DNA of 64,000 nucleotides from Platerodrilus igneus (Eukaryota > Arthropoda > Insecta > Coleoptera > Lycidae): positions 558,001 to 622,000 of the forward strand of contig JARFIW010001320.1 of assembly GCA_036346225.1 (NCBI GenBank), read 5' to 3'. The position numbers and the translations under genes were made by a program. Below are positions 27,431-61,462 of this stretch, piece after piece; positions within the stretch are counted from its first letter, which is position 1; every line of letters begins with the position of its first letter. The notes beneath the pieces are model-generated. The model was not told where the DNA came from, ran no database searches, and saw nothing but the letters and a program-made list of their open reading frames with translations.

Positions 27431-30400
27431 TCAAATATGAGATACAATTGCAATTTTTGTATTTTTCTTTATACCCTTATTCTTATTTGTTCTTAAAGTC
27501 CTATTTGAAAATTTAAGGGCATAAAATATTCTTAATCTTATAAATAATTGTAAAACATATGTAACAGGAAAATCTGAACATTCATGTGCTAATGCAATAT
27601 CTTTCATTTCTTGAAAATAATTAAATGCTACTTGATCACAAATACTACTTGATTCAAATGTCGATACAAATATAGTTTCTAATTTGTAAACATATTGTAA
27701 AAAGTTTTCATGGGGAACGTGGAGAGCTCCAAATGTATTTATACTATTATCGAAAGCTTTAAAGTATGTAAATAATCTATCGGTTGATTGTTGGGGTTGG
27801 TGAGAAAACTGCTTGCAAATTTCACAGTTATGAATTCTTAATGCCTTTTTAATAAGATAGCCACAAACATATATAAAAGCATTTTGAGCTAATAATGACT
27901 CATCTCGATAGTCTGTATCGATAGTAATCAACCGAGGATTGGCTTTTTGTTGGCCATTCACAAAACATTCCATATTTTGATTAAAGTTTGTCAATTTTGT
28001 AATAATTTGATCAAAATCATTAGCACAGTTTGAATTTGTGATGTGAAAATAATTTTGGCAAATAATTTCTTGAAAGCCCGTTCAAATTGTATAGGAGTTG
28101 AATTTCTACAATTTCCACCTTGTTGGCATATACTACCAAAAAAATGTTCCAACGGATCCTGATTTACTCGTCTAGTAATAAGGTATTTAATACCAACTTT
28201 CTTCAATTGCTCCCACAGCTTAATTATTCCACTGATTGTTATGAGCCACGACTTGAAGCACTTAGCCTTAGAAGTAACATTTTTACCATTGTTCTTAAAA
28301 ACTTGTAATTGTTTGATAAAGATGGACAATTCATTTAAAACACTCAACTGAAACTGATCACCTTTGAACACTTTTTGATACACTGTAAATGACCTTTTAG
28401 GAGTTGAATTTAGCATATCAAATAATTTATTAAAGTTTTCAATAACTTTGACCGTAAACATAGCTTCTGCAGGTAGAGCCCCTAAACAAACGTAAGTATT
28501 CATACCGCTTGCAACTGTATGAGATAGAACTTGAACAGCAAGTTTAAGTTTCATCTTTTGAAAATTATTGGGATTGATATGGGAATCGGTTAGCTTTGGT
28601 GCACATCTATTGGGCAAGGTTTTATCTTTATCATAAAATTGTTGTACGTATGACCATGAGGTTTTATTCTCGCCAGACTGCAAAGTGTTTCTTAATAAAT
28701 GGTTGCGTGTTGCTTTTATCAAATGAGGAGTATCAAAAATATATATAATTTTTTTCTCTCCTACATAAAACTCTGGATGGTCAGCAGTCACTCCTAAATT
28801 ATTTGCCAGATTGATAAAATTTGATCCCATATCAGTTACTACTGCTTCGACAATTAATCCAATTTCAGATAACTTTTCAACACATTCTTCTAACACTGTT
28901 TGCAATTGCTCAGCAGGAAAGCTGGAATTTACAAAAAAATACGATACTGATTGTTTCCACTGTGTACACAGTCCTCTGATCATTATTACAGTGGCATTGC
29001 TAGCATGTTCAAACTTTTTTATTCCACTTTGTAGTTCAGTAAACCCAACAATTTCATCCCTTCCAATGTGATAAAAAAGATGTGGTTTTAATGCCATTTC
29101 ATCTATACACAAAATGCAGTGTCTATCCTTTTCTTGCATTTGTTCTACTTTAATTTTTAAAGCTTTAAAAAGAGGCTCATTATAAACACCCGGTTTGTGG
29201 ACTAATTTTTCCGTCATACGTTGTAGAACACGTTTTGATGGGAACACAAAAATGCTTCTTAAATAATTATAAGCTCGTGGACCAAAAAAATATAAAGTCA
29301 AGGCAAATTCTTTATATTGCGTGCTGTATCGTTGCCCATTAGGTTTTTTTCTACAGCTACGAGCTTGAAACTTTACAAAGTCCGCTATTTTCTTAGGTAA
29401 AAACTTATCACATAACTGCTCGAAATCATTTAATGTTGCTGCTTGCTCTTTCACATGCAACATTGTCTGGAAAGAAAGATTCTGTCTCAATCGTCTAATT
29501 TTCTTTTTTAATTTCAATTTACGAGGAGTATGACTACTTAAGACAATTGATGTTTGTGTAGATGTTGTTGGTCTTAAAGGTGATCGAGAGATGGGAAATG
29601 CTGAAGTGGTAACAGTCATATCTACAAATGTATGCATTATTATAATATAAATATCTTTTAGTTTACCTAATTGTGCTGATGTAGAAGGCGCTACATTTTC
29701 CACTGTAGTTAGATGTTCGTTTAAGTCGTATGCAAAACCTTTAGGGGCAAATGGGGCATCAGCTAGGGTTGTGGTGTTATCAATCTTGGGTAAAATAGTA
29801 ACATCTGTAATAATATTTATTTAAAAAAAATTAAATTGCATTTGATATACATTATGCAAAAGAGAGAATACACATTCAATGAAAGCATCATAAGGATATA
29901 GTTAGTATTTTTTTACTTATAAGCAGTCTAACTACATAAATTCTTACTCAGAATGTAACTAAGGGCGCATTATTTGCATACAGAGTTTACATTAAACGGC
30001 TATTGTTTATTACAAACAATGCACAAAAACAACTTCAAGTAGACTACTATGTATTCAGAATGCATACAGTATAATTGCCAAAAAATAGTACCCTAACATC
30101 CCTAGTTTTAACTATAACAATCGAGGCATAATAATAATCCTTTCAATAATATTATATATACCTTTATTTATTTTCTTACCAGGCATGCGAATTTTCTTAG
30201 TAGGCACATTTTCATCTGCAGCAGGCACCAGTTCTCTTTTTATTCCTGCAGATGGTAATTTTTGAATAAACAGAACTGGATATGCTGAGGGTAGCAGTTT
30301 ATTTGCTAGATGGTTTGTGAACATTTTACGGTCAAAGTGTCGAGAACATACCTTGTAGTTATTATACAATGCAGCGGGGGTTTTATCAATTAAATATTTA

Positions 30401-32334: not shown

Positions 32335-33474
32335 TAACCTCATTATCATTCGACCAATAATTATAACTTGTAAAAAAAGGGTTGTATTTTAGGATTTTGT
32401 GTTAAATAATAGACATTTTTTATTTTCCAAAAATTTATTCTTACTTATTATCCAACATTTCCAAATCCAATTAGTTAGTGCATTAGTAGTTACAACAATT
32501 TTTGTAAATTATTATTAGTTCCAATTCATACAGTAAATATTTAACCCAGCTAAAGTGCAAATCATTTTTGTTTATGAGTTTGGGGCTTTTTATTAACCTG
32601 ACTGATGGCTAAGGGATGCTCTGATATATGAATAGTAATGTTGTATCATTGATTGAAACGTAATTTTTTAATATTGATTAGATAACCTGCTTATTAGTAG
32701 CTACCCATATTCTGTTACTGGTCTAGTGATCACTTTGTAAGATTCTGTTTTAAACAAATCTATGTAATTCTGGTTGTCTACCGCGAAATTCATATTACTT
32801 AACACTTTGCTGCTCCTAGTGTTGGTTTGGTTTTATTGACTTTCTTATAAGATATTGATTTTTTTATACCTCAGATATAACTTATTTTCAGCAATGCAAT
32901 TTTAGCACATTTTGAATAACCCAATCTGATTTTATAGGGACGTACAGTCAAATAACTAAAATATCTAAAAATCATACATTTTCACATAGCATATACATGG
33001 CTTAAGTGCAAAATAGCCTTTCCCTGCAAAACAAATATTACAGGGCAAACAAAAAACGATCAGGAATGGATTTAGCAGCTTGGGTTACATTTTTTTTTGT
33101 TATAAAACTTGATTTATATTATGAAGACAGTAATAAATTGTTTCTTCAAGATATTTTTGTTTTAACACACTCAGTTATGACATATTGCAGCTACACTTAT
33201 TGTGGTATACGCAATTTTGAATGTGGTGAAATGAGTAGTGCACTTTAGACGTGATTTTTATTAAACAATATTTAACTACATGAAAGTATTTACTTTTAAA
33301 ATAATAAAAAGAAATATCGAATAATATTATTAACAAAATGGAATTTCGTCATAAAATGTTTTCACTTCAGTTGGAAGGACTTTTATAAGTTCTTGAAGAT
33401 CATCATATTTTGTCTTACTTATTGGAATACTATTTTTGTAAAGTGGCGGTATGTTGAAAGGAATTCCAGAGTAT
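32335..33474. repeat. Dispersed repeat, copy 2, left part
   Basis: Same orientation as 2255-3415. It ends in CCAGAGTAT at the insertion point of the gypsy element. The corresponding uninterrupted sequence is at about 3410-3425. It holds the C-terminal end of the unrecognised minus-strand coding remnant (PPLYKN to VKTF) and no other gene. The preceding stretch 32123-32334 is only weakly similar to copy 1. Confidence 0.88.
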
Positions 33475-34186
33475 TGTAACAAATGGCTTATCACAATATT
33501 TTTGTATCAAAAGTTTTTAGTATAAATATTTTAGCCAATGTAGCAATTTGAGTTTTGAAATCTTATTTCAACTATTTGCACAATTCAAAACTTACAATAA
33601 ATTTCTCATAAATTATTAATAATAAAATTTGCTAATTATTTCCTAAGAATTTAACTACATTGTTGCAATCATGCATGGCATGGAAGTTGGTCAACCCAAA
33701 CACTCATAATTCAGGATGTGCAGTGTCATAATTGCATCACCTTGTACTTTCCATGAAGAAAACATGATTGAATTTGAGCATCATAGAGGGTGATCCAAAA
33801 GGACCACTCTTGGCAGTAGTTAGTGTACTTTAGTCGCGAGTGGTTGGGCACTGATCAGCTCTCTTGACATGATGTAAGTACTTGCTTGTATTTTTTATTT
33901 AAATGTAACTTTATGTATTATTTCATATGTAACAATGTAATCTTTATACTTCTTTCTTGTGTAACACTTGATATGCCGCTCACATGCTTAGAATATAATA
34001 AATTGGATAAATTTGATTGTTTAGTCATTATTGTGCTGTCTGCTCTGATTTTGATGTATACAATGGCAATAGTAGCATATGCTTTAAGATCCCATGATTA
34101 GGACATTTTATCGTCCCTGGTCTCAGCACGTAGGTCCTCTCGTTCTACGCTACCTCCTTCTTTACCTAAAAAACCCCTACGTTGCA
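33475..34186 (+). repeat. 5' LTR of the two-envelope gypsy element
   Basis: 712 bp, TGTAAC to GTTGCA. AATAAA hexamers occur near 33596 and 34001. The sequence GACATGATGTAAGTAC at 33866-33881 combines an ATG with a consensus splice donor (see separate entry). Confidence 0.95.
33869..33881 (+). promoter_or_regulatory. Start codon overlapping a splice donor in the LTR
   Basis: ATGATGTAAGTAC: an ATG (33869-33871), two more bases, then the donor GTAAGTA (GT at 33874-33875). Unspliced, the ATG is followed by ATG TAA, a two-codon upstream frame that stops at once. Spliced, it supplies the first five bases of a coding exon. The acceptor at 40348-40349 is in phase with it. The same 13 bases are kept in the 3' LTR. 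Use of the site is inferred. Confidence 0.6.
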
Positions 34187-34836
34187 TGTGGTGGATTAGT
34201 GCACGGAACCTATAATTTCTTTATATCTTCATATATAAAGAACAAAATCGTCGAAGAAACATAAAGCCTTTCAAAATAAGTATTAAAAAATGTTTTATCA
34301 CATCAAGCTTTCATACTAGCTACTTATTGCTGTTGAACTGCATCGAACTCATGTTTTACATTCAGTGCATTAGTAACTGCATATTTAGAACAATTCATTT
34401 ACTCGTCACAGAATTTTAAAAGTAATTTTGACAATTTTGAATATTAATTATTGATGTAAAAAGCTACTTAATTATTCATGCAGTTTACCTATAAATAACA
34501 TGTCTTACTACATATTACTGTCATTCTGATAAGAAATTGCAAAACCACAAAGATGATGCACTTTAAGCCAAATATAAAACAGCATTGCATTCTTCCATCA
34601 TAATTCTGTTTTCAACATGAAATATTACTATTTTTATTTAACAATTTCCCAAAAATCTTTAAGATACACATGTATGGATCTGAATAGGTTTTAAGATCAT
34701 TGCAATATAAATAATACATAAATTTGTTAAATGAACCCTTCTGTTAACAAAAATGCATGATTAATTGCATTACACAGCTGACGGAAATGAGCACAATAAC
34801 CTACACGTTATATTTAGAAACTAGGAAATATTATTG
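34187..34836 (+). other. Primer-binding region and untranslated leader
   Basis: The sequence directly after the 5' LTR, TGTGGTGGATTAGTGC at 34187, is where a tRNA primer-binding site is expected; I could not assign the tRNA. The remainder is AT-rich leader up to the gag start, with no supported coding sequence. Confidence 0.5.
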
Positions 34837-36141
34837 ATGGAAAATAGCACGCCGGTACATAGGTATAATACACGACAGGCTACTTTTAAACCGTCGATAA
34901 GTTCGATTAATTTTAATGAAAATCCAATCAGTACTCAGTCTAAAGAAAGTTTATTTAAACCTAGGACTTCTCTTAGTAGATCCCCTACCAATTCGAATTC
35001 TTCACTAGTAGACTATCCTACAGAAGTGCAAGAACTTATTTTTCTCGATAGTGCATCGGACATTGACGTTACAATTCAGGTAAACACAAATACTGAAACC
35101 CAAATAAACTTGGCACCACAAGACTTACCAATTATTACACAGGTTACCGAAATGGCTACTGTGAATAACACTATAGCCGACGCTGACAATTTACAGACGT
35201 CGCCAATATTACCAAAATTTATAGAACCGGAAAGCTTCACGCCTGGAAAAAGTAATTGTATAACATTCATACAAGACTTTGAAAAGTGTGCTAGGCACAA
35301 CAACTGGCTTGAAACTACCCAAATAAAATATTTTGGTAGATTCCTTAAAGATAGTTCCAACTTATGGTACGAAAAATATAAGGAGGAACCAACTAATAGA
35401 AATAAGACTTGGACACAAATCAAAAACGATTTCGTTAAATACTATGGAGGGCCGTGTGCTCATCGCTCTGTGCGTATTAAATTACGTAACAGAAAACAAT
35501 TGCAGAATGAATCTGTAATTAATTATTACTTTGACTTGTTAAATATCGCAATTCAATTAACCCCAGCGTTAACGATTACAGAGCTTCGAGAATATTTTGA
35601 AGCAGGCATTTTGCCACAACTCCGCAACAATTTTTTAATGTTAGCGGCTAACACAGACATAACTGAAGAAAGGCTGAAGGACATCTCGTATCACTTGGCC
35701 GACATGCAAAACAATGCCTTATTGGACGCTCTTACAATGCAAACTTCAACACCTTTGTCAATAACGTCCACAACAAATCAGACTGGCACGTATTCCAAAA
35801 CTAATTATTTTAAAAATAGAGACCGTAATAAGCAAAATTATCAGAACCAACCCAAAAATTATTACAACCGCCAAAAATACCCACATCGATGCCCAAATAA
35901 TTTTTTCCAAAATGCTAGAAATAAAGACACTCGAATTAAATGCCTTCAATGTGGTAGAACAGGTCATTTCTATTCATCGTGTACAGAAATCACTATAGAA
36001 CAACGGGACGAAGCACCAATTCGAAACTTAGGACATACAAGACGCACTCCCACGCCAACAAGAGAAAGACGAGTTAGCTTTTCTAGATCGGAATCGCCTA
36101 ACCCAAACGGCATAGCGCGACACGATGCACAAACAAACTAA
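34837..36141 (+). CDS. gag: Gag of the two-envelope gypsy element
   Basis: 434 codons from ATG at 34837 to TAA at 36139-36141. The N-terminus is polar and low-complexity. The middle carries a Ty3-type capsid pattern: FIQDFEKCARHNNW, KYFGRFLKDSSNLWYEKY, KTWTQIKNDFVKYYGG and LRNRKQLQNESVINYYFDLL. The C-terminal nucleocapsid has one CCHC zinc knuckle, CLQCGRTGHFYSSC (about residue 368), in a basic, N- and Q-rich context. Gag forms the particle and binds RNA. Classical insect errantiviruses usually lack such a knuckle, so its presence with envelope genes is of note. The last 40 bases overlap pol, which is in the -1 frame. Confidence 0.92.
   Translation: MENSTPVHRYNTRQATFKPSISSINFNENPISTQSKESLFKPRTSLSRSPTNSNSSLVDYPTEVQELIFLDSASDIDVTIQVNTNTETQINLAPQDLPIITQVTEMATVNNTIADADNLQTSPILPKFIEPESFTPGKSNCITFIQDFEKCARHNNWLETTQIKYFGRFLKDSSNLWYEKYKEEPTNRNKTWTQIKNDFVKYYGGPCAHRSVRIKLRNRKQLQNESVINYYFDLLNIAIQLTPALTITELREYFEAGILPQLRNNFLMLAANTDITEERLKDISYHLADMQNNALLDALTMQTSTPLSITSTTNQTGTYSKTNYFKNRDRNKQNYQNQPKNYYNRQKYPHRCPNNFFQNARNKDTRIKCLQCGRTGHFYSSCTEITIEQRDEAPIRNLGHTRRTPTPTRERRVSFSRSESPNPNGIARHDAQTN
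36102..36108 (+). promoter_or_regulatory. -1 ribosomal frameshift heptamer CCCAAAC
   Basis: The heptamer is read C CCA AAC in the gag frame, the canonical X XXY YYZ arrangement. The -1 frame has a stop at 36099-36101 immediately before it and is open from 36102 into the protease. Pol can therefore be reached only by a slip at or after this site and before the gag stop at 36139. A stimulatory stem or pseudoknot downstream was not assessed. Confidence 0.82.
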
Positions 36142-38540
36142 GTGCCCGTGTCGCCTTATCAAATACAGAACAATTTTTTTATAATACACAACCACAACCT
36201 GACACAAGACGTAAAACGCTGACGATTAAAGGAGAAATAAACAACACCTCTTCAGATATAATTGTGGATACAGGAAGCTATTACAATATAGTACCAGTGT
36301 CAACTACGAACAATCACTACGAAACAAAACGTACAAATGTCAATCTAGTCACTGCAAATAATGTTCGAATACCAATTCTGGGTCAGAAAGAAATTGTAGT
36401 TACTTTTTTAAACCAGAAATTTATTGTAAATGCATTTGTAATAGAAAACCTGCCTGTACCTTTAATTTTGGGTCTTGCCTTTTTGCGATCACACTTTGCT
36501 GTACTTGATTTTGCAAAAAGCGAAATCCTCTTGAAACAGAATGAAAACCTTATTCCGATTCCTTTCACACACGCACACACTGTTAAAGACACCATTTTCA
36601 TTACTTTAGAAAACAGTACAGTAAATGCAGATAGTACACAACAACGCACAAACAAAGTCACTTTAACCACAGACACAATATTATATCGTAATAAAATTTC
36701 AGTGTTAGTAGTAGATATTCAAGATGTATTTGAGAACCCGATGTTATCAAATTGTTTGATAATAGATAATCAGGGTGCATTTGACTACAACACATTTCAA
36801 AAATTTATACAGTTTTTTAAGTTTGTTCCACATGAAGTTTTTCTTTTTTCAAGATTTATTACAGTAACCAAAACTCCTTACGTTTCAAATAACCTGTTGC
36901 ACATCGAAGTTTTGTTGACTGTATATGAACAATTAAAGTTATTTAAATGCACTTGCTTAGGCACATTTTATGAAAGTTCAATTAGTTTAGATGGTAATTT
37001 ATTAACTATAGTGGACAATACAGTCAAATTAAAATTTCAACATAACATAAATCAAAACCTTACTACGTCACAAATGCAACAACTAACTGCCCTATTAGAC
37101 AGTTTTTCCGATATTTTTGCTGACAATACAGCCAGTATGGGTCATACAAATTTGGTAGAGCACAAAATTGATACGGGCCAATCTATACCAATTAAAAGTA
37201 GGGCCTATCGCGTTTCACAGTCTGAACGTGAGGTCATCCAAGAGCAAATAAACGAAATGCTTACGCATGGAGTTATCACACCTTCAACTTCGCCTTGGAG
37301 TTCTCCCATTCTTTTGGTACGCAAAAAGGATGGAGATTTTCGTTTTGCGTAGATTACCGAAAGTTAAATAGTGTAACAAAAAAGAATAACTATCCACTGC
37401 CAAGGATAGATGACACCTTCCTTTATCTGAAAGACGCCAAATTCTTTTCTTGCCTGGATTTATTTTCAGGATTTTGGCAAATTAGTGTCGATAAGGACAG
37501 CAAAGAAAAAACAGCTTTCATCACTACAGATGGTTTATTTCAATTCGAAAAAATGCCTTTTGGGCTTTGCAACGCTCCTGCGTCATTTCAAAACTTAGCT
37601 GACATAGTTTTCGAGAACCTCAAGTGGAGAGAATTGATACTATATTTAGATGACGTCATGGTATTTTCGAGCACGTTTGACGAACACATTCAACGCCTAG
37701 GTCGCGCTTTTGAACGCTTGCGTGCTGCTGGCTTAACACTGAAACCGAGCAAATGCACTTTTGCTTCTGAACAGGTAAAACTTCTCTCGGATACATAGTG
37801 TCCAGTCGTGGTATCGAACCTGACCCAGACAAAATTGCTGCTGTTTTAAAATTTCCTATTCCTAGAACAGTTCGAAACATTCAGAGTTTTTAGGTCTTGC
37901 AAGTTTTTATAGAAAATTTATCCCAAACTTTTCCACTATTGCACACCCATTATATTGCCTAACAAAGAAAGACGTGCGATTTCACTGGAAGGAGGAACAC
38001 GAAATAGCTTTTCAAACACTGAAAAATAAACTCATTTCTCCTCCTACTTTAATTCATTTTGATCCAGACGCGGCAAAAGAGTTACGTGTCGACGCATCCA
38101 GGTGTGGACTTGGAGCCGTCCTGCTACAGAAACAGGACAATGTTTTTCACCCTGTAGGATATATCTCCCGTAGTCTAACCAAATCCGAAATTAATTACAC
38201 CATATCTGAACTAGAAACGCTAGCAGTTATCTGGGGATTAACGTATTTACGCCACTTAGTATATGGCCGTCCAATTACCATAGTAACGGACCATAGCGCT
38301 ATTTGCTTTTTAAAATCCTTAAAGGACCCGACGGGAAAATTAGCACGTTGGTCAATTAAACTTTCCGAATTTGATCACACAATCGTACATAAACAGGGTG
38401 CGGCCCATAGGCATGCGGACTGCTTATCGAGACACCCTGTACTAGAAGCTACACCACAGGACGAAGAACAGGTGTTAATGAATAACTATAGAAATTGTTT
38501 GAAAACCGCACGAAATGTGAGTACAAAATGTTTAACCTAA
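36102..38540 (+). pseudogene. pol: Pol: protease, reverse transcriptase and RNase H, three one-base breaks
   Basis: The -1 frame opens at 36102. Protease: IIVDTGSYYNIVP at 36252-36290 (catalytic DTG) and PVPLILGLAFLRSHF downstream (the I-L-G block). Reverse transcriptase: VEHKIDTGQSIPIKSRAYRV, VITPSTSPWSSPILLVRKKD, then after a break near 37345 VDYRKLNSVTKKNNYPLPRI, FSCLDLFSGFWQI (first palm Asp), MPFGLCNAPASFQ and ELILYLDDVMVFSS (YLDD intact). Further breaks lie near 37790 and 37888. RNase H: ELRVDASRCGLGAVLLQ, ISELETLAVIWGL and VTDHSAICFLKSL, with the acidic residues present. All three breaks are single-base losses in or next to short T or CT runs. The frame stops at 38540 before an odd spacer. 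Confidence 0.9.
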
Positions 38541-38819
38541 TATCACGAAAATTGGTGTTGTTAAAACGAAAATACACTCACCTGAGGAACTGTTTCACTT
38601 TCAACACAAGCGACTTTCTGCCATTAGTCACCACATAGATTGAAAATTGATGGCAGCATTCCATGAATTTTACAAGGCAGCACCTTTTATGTCCACCATG
38701 TTGTACACCGAAATAACAAGTGATAAGATGCACTTGTTTTTGACAAAATATGTTGGCGGGAGTGATAACGTCCCAACACACCAATTTTATAAACACGAAA
38801 AAATATTTGTATTTGAATA
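38541..38819 (+). other. Unexplained 279-bp spacer inside pol
   Basis: RNase H and integrase are normally continuous in gypsy Pol, but here about 280 non-coding bases separate them. Near its ends are AAAATTGGTGTTG (38549) and the near-inverted CAACACACCAATTTT (38773-38788), so it may be a small inverted-repeat insertion. Alternatively, GTGAGTAC at 38517 looks like a splice donor, but no good acceptor is seen. The rest has no recognisable content. Confidence 0.5.
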
Positions 38820-40127
38820 ATGAAATTAATCAATCCCGAACAACAGGCTATAGACATTCCTACTTATTTAATAGAGCCTGCGGACATCACACAATCACAG
38901 TCATTAGACTCTAAGATTGTTAAAGTTATCAACATGATTAAGTACCCAGAAAACAACACCATTGCAGATAATCGTAGAATAAAAAATTTTGTTTTAGACA
39001 ACGATATTTTATATCGCAAAAATTCAAACCCTACAGGTAACCCTAACCTTTTGGTAATGCCGTCTCAGCTAATAGGAGAAATCCTATACACTCATCATGC
39101 AGATCCTCTGTCAGGGCACCTTGGAGTTACTAAGACTTATTACAAAATTAAAGATCGCTACTACTGGGACGGAATGCAAAAAGACGTAATACGATTTGTT
39201 AGAGGTTGCGTGGATTGCCAGTCCCGGAAAGGACATAACCATTTAAAAGCAGCAGGGCAACTGCAGCCAATCTCAGTGTCACTTCCTTTTGACAAAATAG
39301 GAATAGACCTCTTAGGCCCTTTTAGGCGAAGTAGAGGCGGACATAGTATGATCGCAGTTGTGACAGACTATGCAACACGGTGGGCGGAAACAAGGGCATT
39401 GAAAGACGGGAAAGCTCCGCAAGTAGCAAAATTCATTCTAGAACAAATAATAACTAGGCACGGATCGCCACGTGTGATACTTAGCGACAGGGGAAAGGTA
39501 TTTCAATCTGATTTAGTACGAGAGCTACTAAAAATTATGGGCATTAGAAGTTCATTCACAACTTCCTATCATCCACAATGTAACGGCTTGACCGAAAGGT
39601 TGAACCGAACATTGGCCGATATGCTATCATTGTATACAAATACCCAGCAAACTGACTGGAACGAATACCTATCACAGGTAACATTCGCTTACAACACCTC
39701 CCGCCAAGACACCACCAAGGTGTTGCCATTCTTTCTAGTATATGCGCGTGAACCAATATTACCGACAGAGGCCACTCTAAAACAAGACGTTACCGTGGAA
39801 GACGTTCGAATAATTAGAGACAGGGCCTTGCACATTCAAAGTCAAGCCGTGATGAACATTTATGACAAACAGAAAAAATTAAAAGACGCCTACGATAGCA
39901 AGCATAGGCCCTTACATTTTAATATTGGAGATAAAGTTAAGATATACACTCCAAAGCGCATAGTAGGTAAGAGCGAAAAACTACTCTTACGTCAAAAAGG
40001 CGAAGTCGACTATCTTGTAAAAATGGGTTCCTCATCAAACGCAAAAATTGATACGGTGCACGTTAGCCGTATACTTCCATACTACGATCCGTGGGAACCC
40101 GAAGAACCAAACACTTCAAATATATAA
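38820..40127 (+). CDS. pol: Pol: integrase of the two-envelope gypsy element
   Basis: 435 codons open from ATG 38820, but in an intact element it would be part of the polyprotein. HHCC zinc domain: HADPLSGHLG with CVDCQSRK. DDE core: FDKIGIDLLGPF (D1), VILSDRGKVFQ (D2) and HPQCNGLTERLNR (E, 35 residues on). C-terminal domain: LHFNIGDKVKIYTPKR, followed by VDYLVKMG and DTVHVSRILPYYDP. The catalytic triad is complete. Integrase inserts the cDNA with the 4-bp stagger seen as GTAT at the flanks. The frame ends 220 bp before the env1 acceptor. Confidence 0.93.
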   Translation: MKLINPEQQAIDIPTYLIEPADITQSQSLDSKIVKVINMIKYPENNTIADNRRIKNFVLDNDILYRKNSNPTGNPNLLVMPSQLIGEILYTHHADPLSGHLGVTKTYYKIKDRYYWDGMQKDVIRFVRGCVDCQSRKGHNHLKAAGQLQPISVSLPFDKIGIDLLGPFRRSRGGHSMIAVVTDYATRWAETRALKDGKAPQVAKFILEQIITRHGSPRVILSDRGKVFQSDLVRELLKIMGIRSSFTTSYHPQCNGLTERLNRTLADMLSLYTNTQQTDWNEYLSQVTFAYNTSRQDTTKVLPFFLVYAREPILPTEATLKQDVTVEDVRIIRDRALHIQSQAVMNIYDKQKKLKDAYDSKHRPLHFNIGDKVKIYTPKRIVGKSEKLLLRQKGEVDYLVKMGSSSNAKIDTVHVSRILPYYDPWEPEEPNTSNI

Positions 40128-40334
40128 ATGTGAACAAAAAAAAATATATGTATATATATTTAGAATTATAATGAATACATAAATAACTAGATAAATCTTA
40201 CCAGGTTGTCTTATGACACACATTGAAATTGATATTTGAACCATTTTCTATTTTTTTTTAACTCCCGAATCAAATTAATATTGATGACGCGATGTAATTT
40301 TTCTCAACAATTTTTTTTTATAACACATCCACAA

Positions 40335-40350
40335 AGCAATTTATTTTAGG
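40335..40350 (+). promoter_or_regulatory. Candidate splice acceptor for env1
   Basis: AATTTATTTTAG with AG at 40348-40349. The exon would start at G40350, which completes the codon begun by the five bases from the LTR donor exon (33869-33873) and enters the env1 frame at 40351. Spliced envelope mRNA is the rule for insect gypsy-type retroviruses; this junction is predicted from sequence only. Confidence 0.6.
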
Positions 40351-42606
40351 GTACCAATATTCTTGGTGCTGTGCACGAAGTTCATGACAACTCGGGGAGC
40401 TTTGCCAGTTGTCGTGACCACGGGAGCATTCTGGAAGCAACTACCAGGTACTATAGTATATTCAGCAACAATTCCAGTCACCTACCAGACCACGTTGCAA
40501 CAGGATGGAGTATTAGAAGTTAACCCTGATACATATGATCATCTATGTAAGAGTGGGAATTCTCATGTGTGTCGCATGAGTGCTGACTTAGACGATTTGG
40601 GCAAGTTGTTTGACAGAGAACTAGAACTTTTTGCAAACTCTATCAACCCACAATATTGGAATACAGTAACAAGTGATCCATTCGACACAGAGGACACACA
40701 ACCGACAAACACAACACGCTGACGAAAGCGTGCCTTAGATTTTATTGGCGACTTTTTCTCGTTCTGTTGTGGTGTCGCAACAGAGCACAAATTAGATAGT
40801 TTGCATTCGGAAGAACACGAACTAAAAACATTATTATTTAGAATAGATTCCGGACTTCGAAAAAACCTTAGAGAAATTGCTAATACCTCTGAAAACTTTC
40901 AAAATTATCAGAAACAAATTTTAAACAATTTTTTAGAAACCAGACAAAAAATCAAGCAAATCGCTGATTTTGATCAAAACCTTAGAAACACAATCGATCG
41001 TACAATTGACGGTATTGACTTTAAAATTCAACGCTCAATGTACCACATACATACTACTATGGTCAGATTATTAAATTTTGAAAGGTCAATTAATAATATG
41101 GAGATCATAAACACATGTAAGGATCATAAGATCCCACCTGCCGTAATAAGCCCTTCAGTGTTACAACACGATCTAACTAGACTCTCCAGTGTAATAGCTC
41201 AAAACGGTTACGGCCTAGAGATCCCAATACGCGATATTTCTAAGTACTATAAATAACCTATTTCTGATTGTACATTAAGCAGTAATAAAATTTATGTTCA
41301 CGTTCGGGTACCGATTGTAAAATTAGGACAGAAGTGGAACCTTTATGAACTGATAACAACCCCTTTCGCTTGGGAAAATGACACCTGCTTGTTAATGCAT
41401 GATACTCTTTATCTGGCAGTATCACAATCGGAACAAGTAGAAACAAGAGCCACTGTTTTAAAACCCATTTCTGGAACTTCTCTCCACCACTGTCGACCGT
41501 ACCACGATAAACTCTGTTTCATTCCACGTTTTGCTTCTAATGAAACTTATGGCCACCAGTGTGCTTACAAAATGTTTTTAGGTACAACAGTCGAGGACCT
41601 TGCAAAACATTGTTCATTCCGCTGTCATTCATCGACTGCAACAGTAATTTCTGAAATACGAGACGACACATTTGTTATTACTCATCCAAAACCACTCATC
41701 GTTATTCACTGTCCGGTAAATCAACTAAATTGGACGACTCGGTCTACGGTCATCCAGGTTCATTAAAAATACATTTACCCTGTAGTTGCTCTCTATCAGT
41801 CAACAACGACGAAGTGATCTCACCTAGATTTCCTTGTGGAACTAAAACAAATACTCATTTTTCAGCCACACGTACTACCAGCAGTGTGGAGCAATCTCAA
41901 AACATTTGTACTTCAGAAATCCAATATTGAACCTATTTTCAACAACGTCTCTGAATGTCTAAACGATGAATGGGTTTCAACAATCCCACATCTTAATCTT
42001 AGTTCTTCTTCTACGATAAGTAGAATAGAAGATAACATTGAAGATTTACTTCACAAAAATTATGACGATTTATACGCTTCACCCAGTGATGGCATATATT
42101 TAATTTGGAACATTGTTTTATCAATGCTTGTTTTCTACTTACTCTTTCGGCAAGTGCCGATAGTACCGCAGTTTATCCGACCTGCAGCTGCACAAATGTC
42201 GACTAGCACTCAGGACGGAGCGGACACTCAATTTTATACGATAACAACATTTTTCGTAATCTTTTTGTTAGTTTTCTTATATTTACTATACTACTACCTC
42301 AAGAATTGGTGGAAAACTGATCCACGAAATCACTTGTCTAAAAGTGTACAATTTTCCTCAGTAAAGACAGGCCTATCTTCAATTAATAGCCTAGAAACAG
42401 GAAATTGCGAGGGTACCTTCTCGGAAGTCCAGTTGTCTAAAAGAGTGGCACTTTCAGCTCCTGGAACGAAATCCAAGATACCCGATACTAAGGAATTCAC
42501 CAACTGTGAAGAATCATCAGCCAACGTAAATACAGCTACTGCCATACCTTACAGCAAAAACATCAAACTTACCATTGTGTCCGGAACGGTTTCCCAACCT
42601 TGCTAG
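40351..42606 (+). pseudogene. env: Envelope gene 1 (F-type), broken
   Basis: Envelope-type glycoprotein gene in one frame apart from damage. It begins with a hydrophobic signal-like stretch (40351-40420). A cysteine-containing surface part follows (HLCKSGNSHVCRMSADLDDL). A TGA at 40720-40722 falls right beside a dibasic RKR motif at 40723-40731, which is followed by a hydrophobic FIGDFFSFCCGVAT-type segment, as in the baculovirus F/errantivirus Env family. A long helical, heptad-like region follows (40800-41060). A TAA interrupts at 41254-41256. Compensating frame changes lie near 41750 and 41850. Two hydrophobic segments lie at about 42103-42150 and 42232-42300, the second a likely membrane anchor. 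The product would act at the membrane in entry, but this copy cannot encode it whole. A related gene follows at 43069. Confidence 0.85.
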
Positions 42607-43068
42607 TTGGTGGGAATTGGGATTCAACCTACCGATGTTGGATCACATGTACAGAAATACATACTTTTTGAGGCCAATGTAGAATAATGCATGCATAATT
42701 CCGGTCTGTATCTGCCGTTTATATTATATTTATATTTTTATATTGTTTTGAACCTAATGTATAATGATTAGGGAGTCTTTCTGACTGCAGTCAACGTATC
42801 GAGTCTGAAATCTCTGAAAGTAGACCTACATACTTTAATTTTATTTGTTTTGTAGTACGGCCGTCTACAGTAGTCCTCATAGCATTTTTACCTAAACTAC
42901 AAGTATGAGATTTCAAACTTAGCCTTTATGCTTATTCTGTTTACAGCAATGCTTGCAGGATCGATATGCATCCGTTGAGGAAGCACTTATTTGTTTACAT
43001 GGTAAGACAAGGTATGAATAAATTTTAAGAGGCATCAATCATCCTAACATTTTATGTGAACATTTTAG
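42607..43068 (+). other. Interval between the two envelope genes, with a candidate 55-nt mini-exon
   Basis: It is non-coding except for a candidate exon at 42947-43001. That exon is preceded by TTATTCTGTTTACAG (AG at 42945-42946) and followed by the donor GTAAGAC (GT at 43002-43003). A second acceptor, ACATTTTAG (AG at 43067-43068), precedes the env2 frame. Five bases from the LTR exon plus 55 from the mini-exon make 20 whole codons, and env2 begins in phase 0 at 43069, so all three join in frame without a stop. Confidence 0.55.
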
Positions 43069-44904
43069 TTGTTGGCCAAAAACTTAATAGTCTTATTATC
43101 GTCCGCAATTACCATGGCTACCAAACACACACTTACAATTTTTATTTACCTTCTATACAGGTACTCCTATGGAATTACGATTAATCGGGGCATCTACTTG
43201 CAAAGATTGCCTAACATAACATTTTATGAGGCATCTTGTCAAATTTTGTTTAAATTTAATAACCCTTATCCTGTGCTTTTAAATCATAAATGCATGGACG
43301 ACATTTGTAAGTCAAACACTAAATTTTGCGAAATGATACAAAGTTTTACTTCATATTTTAAAAATATTTATCCACATTTAAACGTCGAGCACATATCGGA
43401 AAATGAATTACTATTAGCAGATGACGGAGAAGTACACGACTTCCAGTACATCACACGTAATCACGTCCCGCGACTCTTTACTACCCAATACGAAGTTAAC
43501 CTTCTAATAAAGCGAATTACAAATATTCGAAACATTCCAATATATAGTTTAGGGTACAAAGACCCATTGTACTTGCTTAGAGAACACAGTAACTGCTCTG
43601 ACCAAACTATTCTACTAGCGGTCATGGCAGAGTTGATTGATATCCACGAATGGACCCGTTCATTTTCTGAGATGTGCCAGACTCGCAAACTAACATTAGA
43701 TATAGTCCCTATGCAGGACCTAACCAATGCTTTAGATAGAATTAAGAATGAAATTCAAACTTATGACCATATCTTATCTTTAGATTCTATATCTTCATAT
43801 TATTCATTACTTGTCACGGAATGCACCATGTCACAACATACAGCATTAGTTGGCATTCATGTTTCACTGCTGAGGCGATCCTTAAAAGGTTTAACAATGA
43901 GAAGGTTTATAACACCACCTTTTGCTTGGGAGTTGCACACCTGCTCAGTCACGATTCCAACATCAGACATTGGGATAGCAAAATCCTCTAACGGTTGGAT
44001 TGTTCTTACACCTACGTGTGATCCTTTTCTTGAGGATCTATGCTTCATTAATCATCAATACGATGGTAATGCACTAACTATATCTTGTGCTAAGCATCTT
44101 CTTCAGGAAGGTACTGCCAATCAACTAGGCAACGTGTGTCCAATTCAGTGTAGAGAGACTGGTGGTGAGACTGAATTTATTACTCGCCTAGATGCTAATA
44201 CATATTTAATCACCCACCCACGTAACACAACTGTGGTCAGGTGTAACAACTCAGTTTATCATTTAAGTGAATTTCCAAACATTGGGGCAATTGCAGTTCA
44301 GTTGCCATGTAATTGTCGAATACAAGGAGAGCAAATAGCTATTATTGGCACCGGAATAACATGTGTCACACAGGACACTATGGTAACACTTACGCATTAT
44401 TTACCGGCCGAATGGATAAAGTTTCAGGGCCTAACAATTCCAACTCAAGAAAAACCACCTTTGAGATTCGACAAGTTACAGGATTGCTTGAACGATCAAT
44501 GGCTCTCACAGACACTCAGCCATTCAAGCATTACAACTAGAGATTATCTTCTGGGCGTTATCTTTTTATTCATTACTTTCCTATTCCTATTTATGTTACT
44601 CCTTTATTACAAAATCAGTAGGGTATCAAAAATGAACACGCAAATTACTTCCTGCCAAGCCCGTCAAACATTTTCCACCAGACAACACACCCCTGATCCA
44701 ATTCCTTTAGACCATTTTCCTTCATCGATAGAAACGCCACGATCGACATTTAAAGTGGATGATTACTTAGTGCCATCTCCACCTACACAACACGCATACG
44801 GACCTTTGCTACCAACGCTTCCGGCTAGGTCACAAATATTATTGACAGGAGGCAAATGCAAAAGAGGTCCAATTCTTTCTACTAACTTTACTAAGCAGTG
44901 CTGA
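43069..44904 (+). CDS. env: Envelope gene 2, intact open frame
   Basis: Open for 611 codons plus a stop; the first ATG in frame is 43114, followed by a hydrophobic signal-like stretch. It is related to env1 along its length. Both have a C-x(n)-C surface block (DDICKSNTKFCEM here), the sequence SYYSLLVTECTMS, the block PPFAWELHTCSV (TPFAWENDTC in env1), YLITHPRNTTVVRC (FVITHPKPLIVIHC in env1), and VQLPCNCRI (LPCSCSL in env1). A strong membrane anchor (GVIFLFITFLFLFMLLLYY) lies near residues 492-514, followed by a proline-rich tail of about 95 residues. Unlike env1, I see no dibasic cleavage motif followed by a hydrophobic segment. It may thus be an uncleaved companion glycoprotein. The role is inferred. 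Confidence 0.82.
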   Translation: MLAKNLIVLLSSAITMATKHTLTIFIYLLYRYSYGITINRGIYLQRLPNITFYEASCQILFKFNNPYPVLLNHKCMDDICKSNTKFCEMIQSFTSYFKNIYPHLNVEHISENELLLADDGEVHDFQYITRNHVPRLFTTQYEVNLLIKRITNIRNIPIYSLGYKDPLYLLREHSNCSDQTILLAVMAELIDIHEWTRSFSEMCQTRKLTLDIVPMQDLTNALDRIKNEIQTYDHILSLDSISSYYSLLVTECTMSQHTALVGIHVSLLRRSLKGLTMRRFITPPFAWELHTCSVTIPTSDIGIAKSSNGWIVLTPTCDPFLEDLCFINHQYDGNALTISCAKHLLQEGTANQLGNVCPIQCRETGGETEFITRLDANTYLITHPRNTTVVRCNNSVYHLSEFPNIGAIAVQLPCNCRIQGEQIAIIGTGITCVTQDTMVTLTHYLPAEWIKFQGLTIPTQEKPPLRFDKLQDCLNDQWLSQTLSHSSITTRDYLLGVIFLFITFLFLFMLLLYYKISRVSKMNTQITSCQARQTFSTRQHTPDPIPLDHFPSSIETPRSTFKVDDYLVPSPPTQHAYGPLLPTLPARSQILLTGGKCKRGPILSTNFTKQC

Positions 44905-45336
44905 GCAGACCAACCTCCCAATACCGAAATCAGCAACTTACGTCAGCATGTAAAAGTCAAGCCAGCTATAACAACAATAGTGCTTCAATTTAGTGACGTG
45001 ACGAGTGCCGATAACACTAAATGCCAATGCATTTCCGTGAGTGGACAATCTTGCATATGACAAATTTTATACATTGTTTTTCTATGTAACTTTTATTATT
45101 GTATTAGTCTTAAGAAGTACTAACACTCCATATAGATTTATTATGTAACTTTTGTATTCGTATTACCTATTACTTACCTGTTAACCAAAATCTAAAGATT
45201 ATATAATTTACTTGTCAACGCTGTTGCTTATACTAACGACAAATTTTCAGTAACTAATGTTTCAACTTTTTTTATGTTTAATTCAAGATTAAGGTAACTC
45301 AAACTTGGGGACCAAGTTTCCCTGAGGGCAGGCATA
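44905..45336 (+). other. 3' untranslated region and polypurine tract
   Basis: Non-coding AT-rich tail of the element. The purine-rich GAGGGCAGGCA at 45324-45334 lies two bases before the 3' LTR, where the plus-strand primer is expected. It is short and broken by a C. Confidence 0.5.
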
Positions 45337-46047
45337 TGTAACAAATGGCTTATCACAATATTTTTTTATCAAAAGTTTTTAGTATAAATATTTTAGCCAA
45401 TGTAGCAATTTGAGTTTTGAAATCTTATTTCAACTATTTGCACAATTCAAAACTTACAATAAATTTCTCATAAATTATTAATAATAAAATTTGCTAATTA
45501 TTTCTTAAGAATTTAACTACATTGTTGCAATCATGCATGGCAAGGAAGTTGGTCAACCCAAACACTCATAATGCAGGATGTGCAGTATCATAATTGCATC
45601 ACCTTGTACTTTCCATGAAGGAAACATGATTGAATTTGAGCATCATAGAGGGTGATCCAAAAGGACCACTCTTGGCAGTAGTTAGTGTACTTTAGTCGCG
45701 AGTGGTTGGGCACTGATCAGCTCCCTTGACATGATGTAAGTACTTGCTTGTATTTTTTATTTAAATGTAACTTTAAGTATTATTTCATATGTAACAATGT
45801 AATCTTTATACTTCTTTCTTATGTAACACTTGATATGCCGCTCACATGCTTAGAATATAATAAATTGGATAAATTTGATTGTGTAGTCATTATTGTGCGG
45901 TCTGCTCTGATTTTTATGTATACAATGGCAATAGTAGCATATGCTTTAAGATCCCATGACTAGGACATTTTATCGTCCCTGGTCTCAGCAAGTAGGTCCT
46001 CTCGTTCTACGCTACCCCTTCTTTACCTAAAAAACCCCTACGTTGCA
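45337..46047 (+). repeat. 3' LTR of the two-envelope gypsy element
   Basis: 711 bp, TGTAAC to GTTGCA, followed by the target duplication GTAT at 46048-46051. About 14 substitutions and one missing base separate it from the 5' LTR. The ATG/donor motif is unchanged. Confidence 0.95.
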
Positions 46048-46051
46048 GTAT

Positions 46052-56462: not shown

Positions 56463-58803
56463 ATGGAAAATGAAAAGAAACGAGCCCCTAATTTTACTAA
56501 TGATGAGAAGATGCTTCTATTAAGTCTGGTTGCTGCTAGAAAGAATGTTATTGAAAATAAGAAGACCGATGCTACTACGTGGCGTGACAAAGATATTGCG
56601 TGGGAAAAGATCACAAATGAATTTAATTCCCAAAATAATGTTCAAAGAAATAAGCTTAATTTGAGAACTTATTATGATAATACAAAGAAAAAGGTGCGAA
56701 AAGTAGCCGCACTAGAAAGAGAGGAAGCTAAAGCCACAGGTGGAGGGAAAGTCCTTAAGTTAGATGATCCAACTTTAGACTTTGCTTTAAGTCTTATGAA
56801 TAAGAAGACCGTTATTGGATTTCACAATCAATTTGACAATGACAATGATTTGGAAGATAGTTCTAAAACATATAACGTTAGTTGCTTTAACATTGGTTAG
56901 TTTGTCTGTTGATAAATACTTTAGATGAACATTAACATGGACGTCATTGATCACGAATCGAGTACCTTACAAGACGAAACTAACGTTCTAGTAAGTATTT
57001 AAAAGCTATATTAATGTCATGCTATTGCCTTTTTTTACAGGAAAACTATATGAAGGACTCTTCGTTAAGCAAAACTATAATCGTAGAAAGAGGGACTTCA
57101 AACCACGACAATTGTCAAGCAGGCCCTTCGTTAGTAACAGAAAAGCAGAATAGCCCACGCAAAGAATCACGAATGCAACGACGAAGACCACCTTTAACAT
57201 TAAATTCTTCACATATATCCAAGCAGTTGTTACGTGCTAAAATTTGGCACTAGACATCTTTTTAGTTTAGTTTTGATATGCGTGAGATTCGCGCCATAAA
57301 TTTGAAAGACTTGGCGCGTATATTTCCGTCACGTCAGAAGTGCATTGGACGAACTTCGCGCCGACGCGTGTGGGGAGAAGAAAAAGTGGGGAAGTTTCCG
57401 GAAGACGCTGAGAAAACGGGGAACTTTGCGGCTGAACATCGAGAAGAGTGGTCGGGTCTGGTATCGTATCTTTATTTTAATTATGTAGATTCCCTTCTTG
57501 CTTATCTTTGATTGTCGACCCTATAAACCTGTTCCTTATCGTTCCGCTACATAGGTAAAAGAAGATAATTTGGATACAACCTGGTAGCAGCCCACGCCTG
57601 CAGTAGCTAGCCGGAGCAATCCTGATGGAGGTCGCAGCCACCATCTTTAAATAATTTGGAAAGGGGCCACGAGCAACCCTGACAGAAATGATTCTGTAGG
57701 AAGCTGTACCTATCTATGTAAGTACTCCATTTTTTATAAAACCCTTTATGCATTTTACATATTTCTCGTCATTTCCGTGTAATAATTTGCATATTGTGTG
57801 ACGTCATTGACAGATGGGCGCGTTAATTTCCACTTTATGGATTAGCGTTACCAACTGCCGTTGTGTCGCATATACTGCGTCGACGGTAATGTAAAAATCA
57901 CGTGTAAATGTAAGAATTGGCGCCCCACGTTGGGTCGTTGGTCGACGCGGTATACGCGACACAACGGCAGTTGGTAACACTAATCTATAATATGGAAATT
58001 AGCGCGCTCATCTGTCAATGACGTTACACAATATGCAAATTATTACACGTAATGACGAAATATATCAATTTCATAAAAGGTATTATAAACAAAATCCCAC
58101 GCACGGGGTACTCACATGAATAGGTCCAGCTTCCTACAGAATCACTTCCGTCAAGGTTGCTCGTGGCTCCTTTCCAAATTATTTAAAGATGGTGGCTGCA
58201 ACCTCCATCAGCATTGCTCCGGCTAGCTACTGCAGGGCTCCCTGGACTCGTTCATTCTAGGGTCGTGGACTGCTGCCAGGTTGAATCCAAAATATCTTCT
58301 TTTACCTATGTAGCGGAACGATAAGGAACGGGTTTATAGGATCGACAATCAAAGATAAGCAAGAAAGGAATCTATATAATTAAAATAAAGATACGATACC
58401 AGACCCGACCACTCTTCTCGATGTTCAGCAGCAAAGTTCCCGCGTCTCCCGGAAACTTCCCTACTTTTCTCCCGCCACTCGCATCGGCACGAAGTCTCGT
58501 GCAAGCACTTCTGACGTAACGGAAATACGCGCACCAAGTCTTTCAAATTTGTGGCGCGAAATTCCCGCATATCAAAACTAAACTAAAAAGATGTCTAGTG
58601 CCAAATTTTGGCACGTAACACAGTATTCATATTTTACAAAAATAAAAATAGAAATTGCAGAGTTGCAAAAGAAACAACTGAACATGCAAATTTAACATTT
58701 GGAAAAAGAGCAAGAATTGCGTCTTCAAATTCTTGAAGTTGAACTTAAGGTTAAAAAAGCACAATTGGGGTTGGTTTTAGGAAATAAAAATACCTTTTTG
58801 TAA
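56463..58803 (+). pseudogene. Harbinger Myb/SANT-like DNA-binding protein, split by inverted LTRs
   Basis: Second gene of the outer PIF/Harbinger transposon. Exon 1 from ATG 56463: RAPNFTNDEKMLLLSLVAAR and NVIENKKTDATTWRDKDIAW, then RTYYDNTKKKVRKVAALE, a Myb/SANT-like (MSANTD-type) trihelix. Donors and acceptors near 56880, 56992 and 57040 suggest small exons; the exon at 57041 reads ENYMKDSSLSKTIIVERGTS. The gene is interrupted at 57228 by the inverted LTR pair and resumes at 58625 with IAELQKKQLNMQI and LEKEQELRLQILEVELKVKK, a coiled coil, stopping at 58801-58803. One in-frame TAA follows MQI. Such proteins bind the transposon ends and help import the Harbinger transposase. Confidence 0.8.
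57228..58620. mobile_element. Inverted pair of TGTTACGTG-family LTRs with one shared target duplication
   Basis: The left LTR (57228-57915, plus orientation, TGTTACGTGC to TGTAAGA) is followed by about 25 bp with a primer-binding-like TGGCGCCCCACGTTGGG. A right LTR in the opposite orientation follows (58620 back to about 57941, lacking its last 40 bp or so). CAGT flanks both sides (57224-57227 and 58621-58624). Both outer ends are therefore true LTR 5' ends (U3), and the unit inserted as one piece. No internal coding DNA remains. It interrupts the Harbinger Myb gene. Confidence 0.88.
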
Positions 58804-60291: not shown

Positions 60292-60502
60292 ATGTTAGAC
60301 GATGAGGATGAAGATATAATGGAGTATTTAAACTATTTGAATAGGCCAAGGATGTTACTTGCCATTAGGAAAAGAGCAGATCATTTTGATAGGCGGAATA
60401 ATTATGATTTCTTTTTGAGGTTTCGTCTGTCCAAAGAAACTGTTTACACTTTACAGGATTGTAAATGAAATCTGTGGTACAATTAGCTCCAATACCAATA
60501 GG

Positions 60503-60560
<58 letters not shown>

Positions 60561-61462
60561 CATTTAAAATGTATAGGTTTATCAAAGATATTTGTTTTTA
60601 TGAATCATGCAATTTCGCCTGTTATAATGGTGCTCTTAACCATCAGATTTTATGCTACAGGGTCCTTTCTAATTGCTGTTGGTGATTGTATGGGGATTCT
60701 TAGGAGTACTGCTAGTAAGGCAATATATAAAGTGTCTCGTCCTTTAGCACAACTGCGTCCACGCTATATCAAGATGCCAAACACGGATCAGGAAGTTTTG
60801 AATGTTCGTCAAACATTCTTTAACATAGCTAGATTTCCTAGGTGTATAGGTGCTCATGACTGTTCCCACGTTAAAATTCAATCACCCGGCGCCAATAATG
60901 CGGAAACATTCAGAAATAGAAAAAATTTCTTTTCTATTAATGTTCAAACAATTGCTGAACCGGATTTAAAAATACAAAACATAGTGGCACGTTGGCCAGG
61001 TTCTGCGCACGATGCAACTATTTTTAACAATTCTCTTCTCAGAGGTAAATTTGAAAGGAGAGAAATGCAGGACAACTTAATTGTAGCAGATAGTGGATAT
61101 CCTATTAAAAACTATTTAATAACGCCACTAGCAAATCCAGTTACTGCAGCAGAACAACTTTTTAATGAATCCTTGACAAGGACTAGAAATTCTGTGGAGC
61201 GTAGCTATGGTGTATGGAAAAGGAGATTTCCGGTTCTTGCCTTGGGGATCCGCCAACAACTTGATCGAGTTGAAGCGATTATTGTTTCTACAGCAGTGTT
61301 GCATAATATTGCATGTGATATATGAGGGAACGAGATCCTCCTTTCGACCCTGATGTTGAAGCTGCTGTAGAACTTCTGGATGTACCAAATAGGAATAATA
61401 TACAATTTAATAATTTCACAAGAAATAATTTAATTAATGAGTACTTTCAAAGATTAGTTTAA
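60292..61462 (+). pseudogene. Inner Harbinger transposase (HARBI1-like), near complete
   Basis: DDE nuclease. Exon 1 from ATG 60292: MLDDEDEDIMEYLNYLNRPR, then RKRADHFDRRNNYDFFLRFR. It ends near 60501 before an intron that contains an (AT)n run. Exon 2 from about 60600: SPVIMVLLTIRFYATGSFLI, RFPRCIGAHDCSHVKIQSPG (first D), FFSINVQTIAEPDLKIQNIV, RWPGSAHDATIFNNSLLRGK, LIVADSGYPIKNYL (second D), and RTRNSVERSYGVWKRRFPVL (E). At 61318 an extra AT dinucleotide turns the frame into a stop at 61323-61325. In the next frame the expected C-terminus continues (RERDPPFDPDVEAAVELLDV) to 61462. There is also a TGA after LQDCK near 60471, at the exon edge. It cuts and joins at TWA targets together with the Myb partner. 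Confidence 0.85.
60504..60558. repeat. (AT)n microsatellite in the Harbinger transposase intron
   Basis: Pure AT run directly after the donor-like GTAATATAT. It keeps a frame open by chance (alternating I and Y). Confidence 0.95.

What the first reader, a model, noticed from the sequence alone, without database searches (positions are those of the whole stretch)
40351..44904. One gypsy element with two tandem, related envelope genes
Seen: two non-overlapping frames downstream of integrase share a series of blocks in the same order (CKS..C surface block, YY..C, PFAWE..TC, T/VITHP...C, LPC.C) and both end in a membrane anchor. Known: insect gypsy-type retroviruses normally carry one F-type envelope. 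Inference: an envelope duplication followed by divergence. This is the most unusual gene layout in the window and I do not know of a described family with it.
Basis: partly seen in the sequence, partly recalled or inferred. Interest (0 to 1): 0.88.

Follow-up and report, generated by a model that had tools for sequence, protein, structure and literature searches.

The report
Insect retroelement with two envelope genes
A beetle retrovirus-like element carries two related envelope genes side by side, one built like a normal membrane-fusing envelope and one that lacks the fusion parts, and many related copies keep the same pair.

Summary
The pair is real and not a local accident. One Ty3/gypsy-type provirus (33475-46047; LTRs 97.9% alike, flanked by GTAT) holds env1 (40324-42606, broken) and env2 (43114-44904, open). 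env1 is F-type, with basic cleavage residues and a fusion peptide. env2 is a distant homologue (profile match E 2.2e-35) with an F-like predicted fold, but at the matching place it has an acidic DDG-type block and no dibasic site, in every env2 sequence seen that covers it. In the host genome env1 was found just upstream in 40 of 66 env2 loci, mostly at near-constant spacing, and downstream in none. Gene models and adjacent locus tags show the same env1-env2 order in the fireflies Abscondita and Lamprigera. Both genes show purifying selection, and env1 and env2 identities co-vary across 33 loci (r 0.85). Rooted on another F-envelope family of the host, env1 and env2 are sister clades that split before the sampled beetle env1 genes diverged. 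Best reading: a lineage with a paired envelope, env1 the fusogen and env2 an uncleaved accessory glycoprotein. The role of env2 is inferred. Nine paper searches of an incomplete library listed no description.

The parts
33471..33474 (.). target-site duplication GTAT, left copy
   Evidence: Flanking bases
33475..34186 (+). 5' LTR (712 bp, TG...CA)
   Evidence: 697 of 712 alignment columns identical with the 3' LTR; only two LTR copies in the window
34837..36141 (+). gag, open; Retrotrans_gag E 2.6e-6; CCHC-like motif near 35938-35988
   Evidence: zf-CCHC itself E 0.35, below its cut-off
36102..40127 (+). pol, broken into pieces in several frames (protease/RT start 36102-37352, RT 37232-37798, RT end-RNaseH 37866-38540, integrase 38817-40127)
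   Evidence: RNaseH and integrase over cut-off, protease below cut-off; RVT_1 E 6.1e-30
40342..40349 (+). candidate 3' splice site (TATTTTAG) before env1; by sequence only
40324..42606 (+). env1, F-type envelope, broken: stops at 40720, 41254, 41764 and a frame change before 41818
   Evidence: Baculo_F E 3.5e-8 (over cut-off) on 41257-41763 and E 1.2e-3 (below cut-off) on 40723-41253
40723..40779 (+). env1 basic residues RKR followed by fusion-peptide-type stretch ALDFIGDFFSFCCGVA
   Evidence: similar in beetle relatives and in 9 of 12 host env1 loci scanned
42091..42288 (+). env1 two C-terminal hydrophobic segments (42091-42147 and 42232-42288)
   Evidence: also two in Abscondita env1 P0030
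42940..42946 (+). candidate 3' splice site (TTTACAG) before env2; by sequence only
43114..44904 (+). env2, 596 aa, open frame; F-like predicted fold; no credible Pfam match
43420..43431 (+). env2 acidic block DDGE at the place of the cleavage site and fusion peptide
44548..44604 (+). env2 membrane anchor
45337..46047 (+). 3' LTR (711 bp)
46048..46051 (.). target-site duplication GTAT, right copy

Best explanation
This is one provirus of a Ty3/gypsy lineage that carries two paralogous F-family envelope genes as a stable pair. Shown: both genes lie in one LTR-bounded insertion; the order integrase-env1-env2 recurs in the host genome, and env1-env2 in two firefly genera; both genes evolve under purifying selection and their identities co-vary across loci; env1 has basic cleavage residues and a fusion peptide; env2 has an F-like predicted fold and a membrane anchor but an acidic block where the cleavage site and fusion peptide would be. 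Inferred: env1 is the cleaved fusogen. env2 is made from its own spliced mRNA, sits in the same membranes uncleaved, and serves as an accessory glycoprotein. It may bind receptor, restrain or assist env1, or block re-entry into cells already carrying the element.
Against: No expression, splicing or protein data for this element. env1 was not detected in 26 of 66 env2 loci, and in L022 and L040 integrase is followed by env2 with no env1 detected; these may be deletions or truncated views, but env2-only elements are possible. 66 of 118 env1 rows had no listed env2 within 6 kb downstream, though the tool scores only its best candidates. The env2 model is only moderate (mean pLDDT 57), so the fold rests on its core. 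Several env2 sequences keep a single basic residue at the old site (NER, DDK), and firefly env2 has a TRNHVKR stretch further on that might be cut by some protease; the window copy lacks the KR. Within-subfamily dN/dS is 0.25-1.12 over 10 pairs and median 0.54 for env1 (46 pairs), partly neutral decay.
Confidence: 0.6

Rival explanations
1. env2 was acquired from another F-envelope element by recombination rather than by duplication inside this lineage, and kept as a second, differently specific envelope.
For: The env1/env2 split is deeper than the split among beetle env1 genes. env2-type proteins with an organism name were found only in fireflies (family checked), while env1-type proteins also occur in Leptinotarsa and Hypothenemus.
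Against: env1 and env2 are nearest relatives in the sampled set, which has one other F-envelope family as outgroup. No donor element was identified. The protein search only sees relatives that share short exact words.
Confidence: 0.3
2. env2 is an interference protein: it occupies the receptor or mixes into env1 trimers and so prevents reinfection of cells that carry the element, much like a fusion-dead envelope kept as a restriction factor.
For: Lack of the cleavage site and fusion peptide with an F-like fold; purifying selection. Fusion-dead F homologues exist: baculovirus group I F-like proteins lack the furin site and lost fusion (PMC4864199, passages read).
Against: No data on expression, trimer mixing or interference. 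A negative regulator would not by itself explain such regular pairing with env1.
Confidence: 0.2
3. The second gene is the remnant of a neighbouring element inserted or joined by chance; the layout is an accident of this locus.
For: env1 is decayed and env2 open in this copy. Copies with gag or integrase next to env2 exist (L022, L023, L040).
Against: Single LTR pair with target duplication and no internal LTR. The same order in 40 of 66 host env2 loci and in two firefly genera.
Confidence: 0.02
4. env2 is a co-opted host gene that the element merely flanks.
For: Open frame and purifying selection.
Against: At least 89 dispersed env2 loci, many beside env1 and some also beside integrase. Eight A. 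leii gene models lie on contigs of four different lengths.
Confidence: 0.03

Closest known systems
Insect endogenous retroviruses (errantiviruses) with one env-F gene, such as ZAM and gypsy
   Same: LTRs, gag, pol, and an F-type envelope with furin site, fusion peptide and anchor (env1); env known to be made from a spliced mRNA (PMC12992720 and PMC4276936, passages read)
   Different: A second paralogue without the fusion parts follows env1. The gag has a CCHC-like motif, which errantivirus gags lack as far as I recall. Pol phylogeny not tested.
Baculovirus group I F-like protein (Ac23 type)
   Same: F homologue without furin site that lost fusion while staying on the virion; kept beside another fusogen (PMC4864199, passages read)
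   Different: There the partner fusogen is GP64, unrelated to F (recalled). Here the partner is a paralogue of the same fold in a retroelement.
Paramyxovirus two-glycoprotein entry (attachment protein plus F)
   Same: Two surface proteins, one of them an F-type fusogen (recalled)
   Different: The attachment proteins are not F paralogues (recalled). An attachment role for env2 is only a hypothesis.
Iris, an env-derived Drosophila host gene
   Same: F-type envelope retained under selection in the host (reference title seen; details recalled)
   Different: A host gene, not part of a mobile element.
Lampyris noctiluca errantivirus 1
   Same: Errantivirus of a firefly-family beetle with an envelope of 508 aa that HHpred likened to a paramyxovirus F (PMC7093385, passages read)
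   Different: Three open frames, one envelope.

Membership tests
F-type (Baculo_F) envelope: env1 | Pfam Baculo_F match over its cut-off | tested here: met
   41257-41763: 32.9 bits against cut-off 24.1; 40723-41253 only 18 bits
F-type (Baculo_F) envelope: env1 | basic cleavage site followed by a fusion peptide | tested here: met
   RKR then ALDFIGDFF in the window, just after the stop at 40720; 8 env1 sequences picked by the peptide's pattern, 7 with a dibasic end and P0029 reading HPR; 9 of 12 host loci scanned show it
F-type (Baculo_F) envelope: env2 | Pfam Baculo_F match | tested here: not met
   No Baculo_F match listed up to E 10
F-type (Baculo_F) envelope: env2 | class I F fold | tested here: met
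   Predicted model only; confidence moderate
F-type (Baculo_F) envelope: env2 | cleavage site and fusion peptide | tested here: not met
   17 env2 sequences picked by the acidic block, upstream part judged in 15; 10 further host frames picked for being open
Errantivirus / insect ERV clade | Pol falls in the errantivirus clade | not tested
   No errantivirus Pol set was at hand
Errantivirus / insect ERV clade | env from a spliced subgenomic mRNA | not testable with these tools
   Only candidate acceptors by sequence
Errantivirus / insect ERV clade | gag without CCHC zinc knuckle (recalled) | tested here: inconclusive
   CX2CX4HX4C pattern visible in gag, zf-CCHC below cut-off
LTR retrotransposon, Ty3/gypsy type | LTRs, target duplication, order protease-RT-RNaseH-integrase | tested here: met
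   protease match below its cut-off

The most novel reading that the evidence does not exclude
A retrovirus-like lineage has split entry between two proteins of one fold: env1 kept fusion, while env2, a former fusogen, lost cleavage and fusion and became the dedicated receptor-binding or triggering partner. This would be a two-protein entry machine evolved by envelope duplication.
Probability: 0.3. Interest if true: 0.88.

Novelty: new variant of a known kind. Interest (0 to 1): 0.74.

Why it matters
Retroviruses and insect endogenous retroviruses are generally taken to use a single envelope protein. A lineage with many copies that keeps two paralogous ones, one of them without its fusion parts and under selection, gives a natural case of possible division of labour in a class I fusion system. 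It makes a general question testable: how attachment and fusion functions become separated. It also provides a large set of natural pairs for studying co-evolution of two surface proteins, and a marker for what appears to be an undescribed group of beetle elements.

Tried and rejected
Chance insertion of a neighbouring element: rejected by the LTR and target-duplication evidence and by the recurring pair. Host gene: unlikely with dozens of dispersed copies. Recent in-element tandem duplication: rejected, as the best nucleotide match left between env1 and env2 is 38 bases at 82% (E 0.004) and the tree split is deep. A retro-copied spliced env2 message as explanation of L026/L030, whose sequence upstream of a TTTTTTTAG boundary differs from their relatives: the upstream part matches neither their own downstream flank nor the window element; left unexplained. 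L023 looks like a gag-to-env2 deletion, since its junction shows no acceptor. Viral-contig search with env2: no relative confirmed. Structure of env1 relative P0030: too poor to use (mean pLDDT 46.6); its viral fold search listed two baculovirus F proteins at E 1.6e-6 and 1.8e-4 but was not relied on. No sequence match of env2 in PDB up to E 10. Intactness of env2 in this copy is not used as evidence of selection: with about 2% LTR divergence it may be luck.
Full report
The element. Two direct repeats of 712 and 711 bp (33475-34186, 45337-46047) align with 697 of 712 columns identical. They begin TG, end CA, and are flanked by GTAT on both sides. No third LTR copy lies in the window. Between them are an open gag (34837-36141), pol in pieces (RT E 6.1e-30; RNaseH and integrase over cut-off, protease below it), env1 in pieces and env2. 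Thus both envelope genes arrived in one insertion. The window lies at C1248:558001-622000 of a 2.71-Gb assembly of unnamed origin. The nearest named relatives of env2 are from fireflies (family checked), so the host is probably a related beetle; this is inference.

The observation. The env1 piece 41257-41763 matches env2 with E 2e-14, piece 41818-42603 with 3e-6 and piece 40324-40719 with 7e-4; piece 40723-41253 does not match pairwise. Against 500 shuffles of env2, none of those that aligned reached the real score for the first two pieces (0 of 358 and 0 of 276); three of 301 did for the third. With relatives added, the env2 alignment (20 rows, of which the program used 14) and the env1 alignment (5 rows) match over 456 columns with probability 99.9 and E 2.2e-35.

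The pair is general. A search with env2 gave 76 rows, which I merged into 66 places; 12 of these match over more than 490 residues without a stop in a frame of 597 aa or more. A search with one env1 piece gave 150 rows, of which I count 17 as env2-type cross-hits (30-32% identity). env1 lies upstream on the same strand within 5 kb in 36 of 66, in 31 of them at 1351-1725 bases from the env1 match to the projected env2 start; none lies downstream within 5 kb and none on the opposite strand within 8 kb. Reading the loci held adds four more (L012, L013, L017, L051), so 40 of 66. Of 50 loci read (48 places), 33 have env1 before env2; of the 20 fetched with longer flank, 11 show integrase, env1 and env2 in order; L022 and L040 show integrase and env2 without env1. 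Adding 23 env2 places found with an env2 of another subfamily gives 49 of 89 within 6 kb, with 1 on the opposite strand upstream and 0 downstream; 38 of the 50 best env1 rows and 52 of all 118 rows used have env2 within 6 kb downstream. The tool scores only its best candidates, so missing partners are partly a limit of the lists. By the tables, five places have an env1 frame of 635 aa or more and an env2 frame of 597 aa or more with no stop in the matched parts.

Other species. Gene models with env1 parts followed by env2 parts: P0029 and P0008 (env1 tail only) in Abscondita; P0007, P0010, P0014 and P0015 in Lamprigera. These are automatic gene models, which can join neighbours, and P0029 also has an env2 piece before its env1; but each has env1 followed by env2. 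Env1-type proteins also occur in Leptinotarsa and Hypothenemus. No env2 from these turned up, whose reach is limited; nor did an Aquatica env1.

History and selection. Unrooted, env1 (8 rows) and env2 (9 rows) separate with support 100/100. Rooted on five copies of another F-envelope family of the same host, env1 (95/94) and env2 (100/96) are sister groups; the program warns of long branches. The eight loci of that family held with 1.5-kb flanks (L001-L008) show no match to the env1 or env2 queries of this pair, only a weak match to the Hypothenemus F protein in seven of them. env2 frames from different subfamilies differ at 23-42% of nonsynonymous but 69-82% of synonymous sites; within subfamilies dN/dS is 0.25-1.12 in 10 pairs, printed median 0.48. 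env1, from local matches that include broken copies: median pN 0.31 and pS 0.78 over the 175 of 237 pairs with pS above 0.55; median dN/dS 0.54 over 46 close pairs. Across 33 loci with both genes, env1 and env2 identities correlate with r 0.846 over 259 pairs, and 0 of 999 permutations reach it. So the two genes are mostly inherited together and both are constrained.

How it may work. From established knowledge, F-type envelopes are cut at a basic site and insert the exposed peptide into the target membrane. env1 has the parts for this. env2 has an F-like fold and anchor but lacks both parts in every subfamily seen, while remaining under selection. I therefore infer an accessory surface glycoprotein that works with env1. 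Baculoviruses offer a parallel: group I F-like proteins lack the furin site, lost fusion, and remain on the virion beside GP64 (PMC4864199, passages read). Whether env2 binds receptor, controls env1 or blocks reinfection cannot be told from sequence. The cytoplasmic tails of the host env2 frames printed share short motifs such as SLLP in most and a tyrosine-proline element, and none of the late-domain patterns searched; their meaning is open.

In print. Nine searches listed no paper that I recognised as describing an insect element with two paralogous envelopes; only titles and abstract starts were seen for most. Of the papers opened, only passages were read: PMC12992720, PMC13172572, PMC8672886, PMC10536682, PMC4864199, PMC7093385, PMC4276936, PMC11952523. 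The library lacks most subscription journals, so it may have been described there or in a preprint.

Verdict. The layout is real, common in this host, shared with fireflies and, as far as these searches go, undescribed. It is a new variant of the insect endogenous retrovirus kind; a claim of a split entry machine is attractive but unproven.

Noticed in passing
G000, 72 places (L001-L008 held): A separate, abundant Baculo_F envelope family in the same genome, many with open frames; RRKR-GLING site printed for 7 of the 8 loci held; no env1 or env2 of the pair found within their 1.5-kb flanks.
   Followed up: partly
L026, L030 (upstream of about position 973, oriented): Two env2 copies that are 95.5% alike upstream, yet show no blastn match to four relatives beyond a boundary that in two relatives ends a T-rich tract with AG; no open frame of 60 codons or more was found there.
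   Followed up: partly
L022, L040: Integrase followed by env2 with no env1 detected between; loss of env1, or an env2-only form.
   Followed up: partly
L023: LTR part, then a stretch like window gag residues 109-200, joined to the region before env2; internal deletion with env2 still open.
   Followed up: partly
G000:C1199:4508113-4516821: Cluster of several env2 fragments in a row.
   Followed up: no
window 13952-16003: LINE-type (recalled name) reverse transcriptase frame of 683 aa, RVT_1 E 1e-36.
   Followed up: no
window 27991-29703 (-): P-element-like transposase frame of 570 aa; a THAP domain frame lies at 604-1341 (-).
   Followed up: no
window 56463-56900 and 60465-61325: Myb/SANT-like protein and DDE_Tnp_4 transposase, together resembling a PIF/Harbinger element (name recalled).
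   Followed up: no
P0018, P0019, P0024: Public firefly gene models in which env2 pieces are fused to other genes (matrixin and MADF by Pfam; an unidentified multi-pass-looking protein in P0024, by eye): likely annotation artefacts.
   Followed up: no
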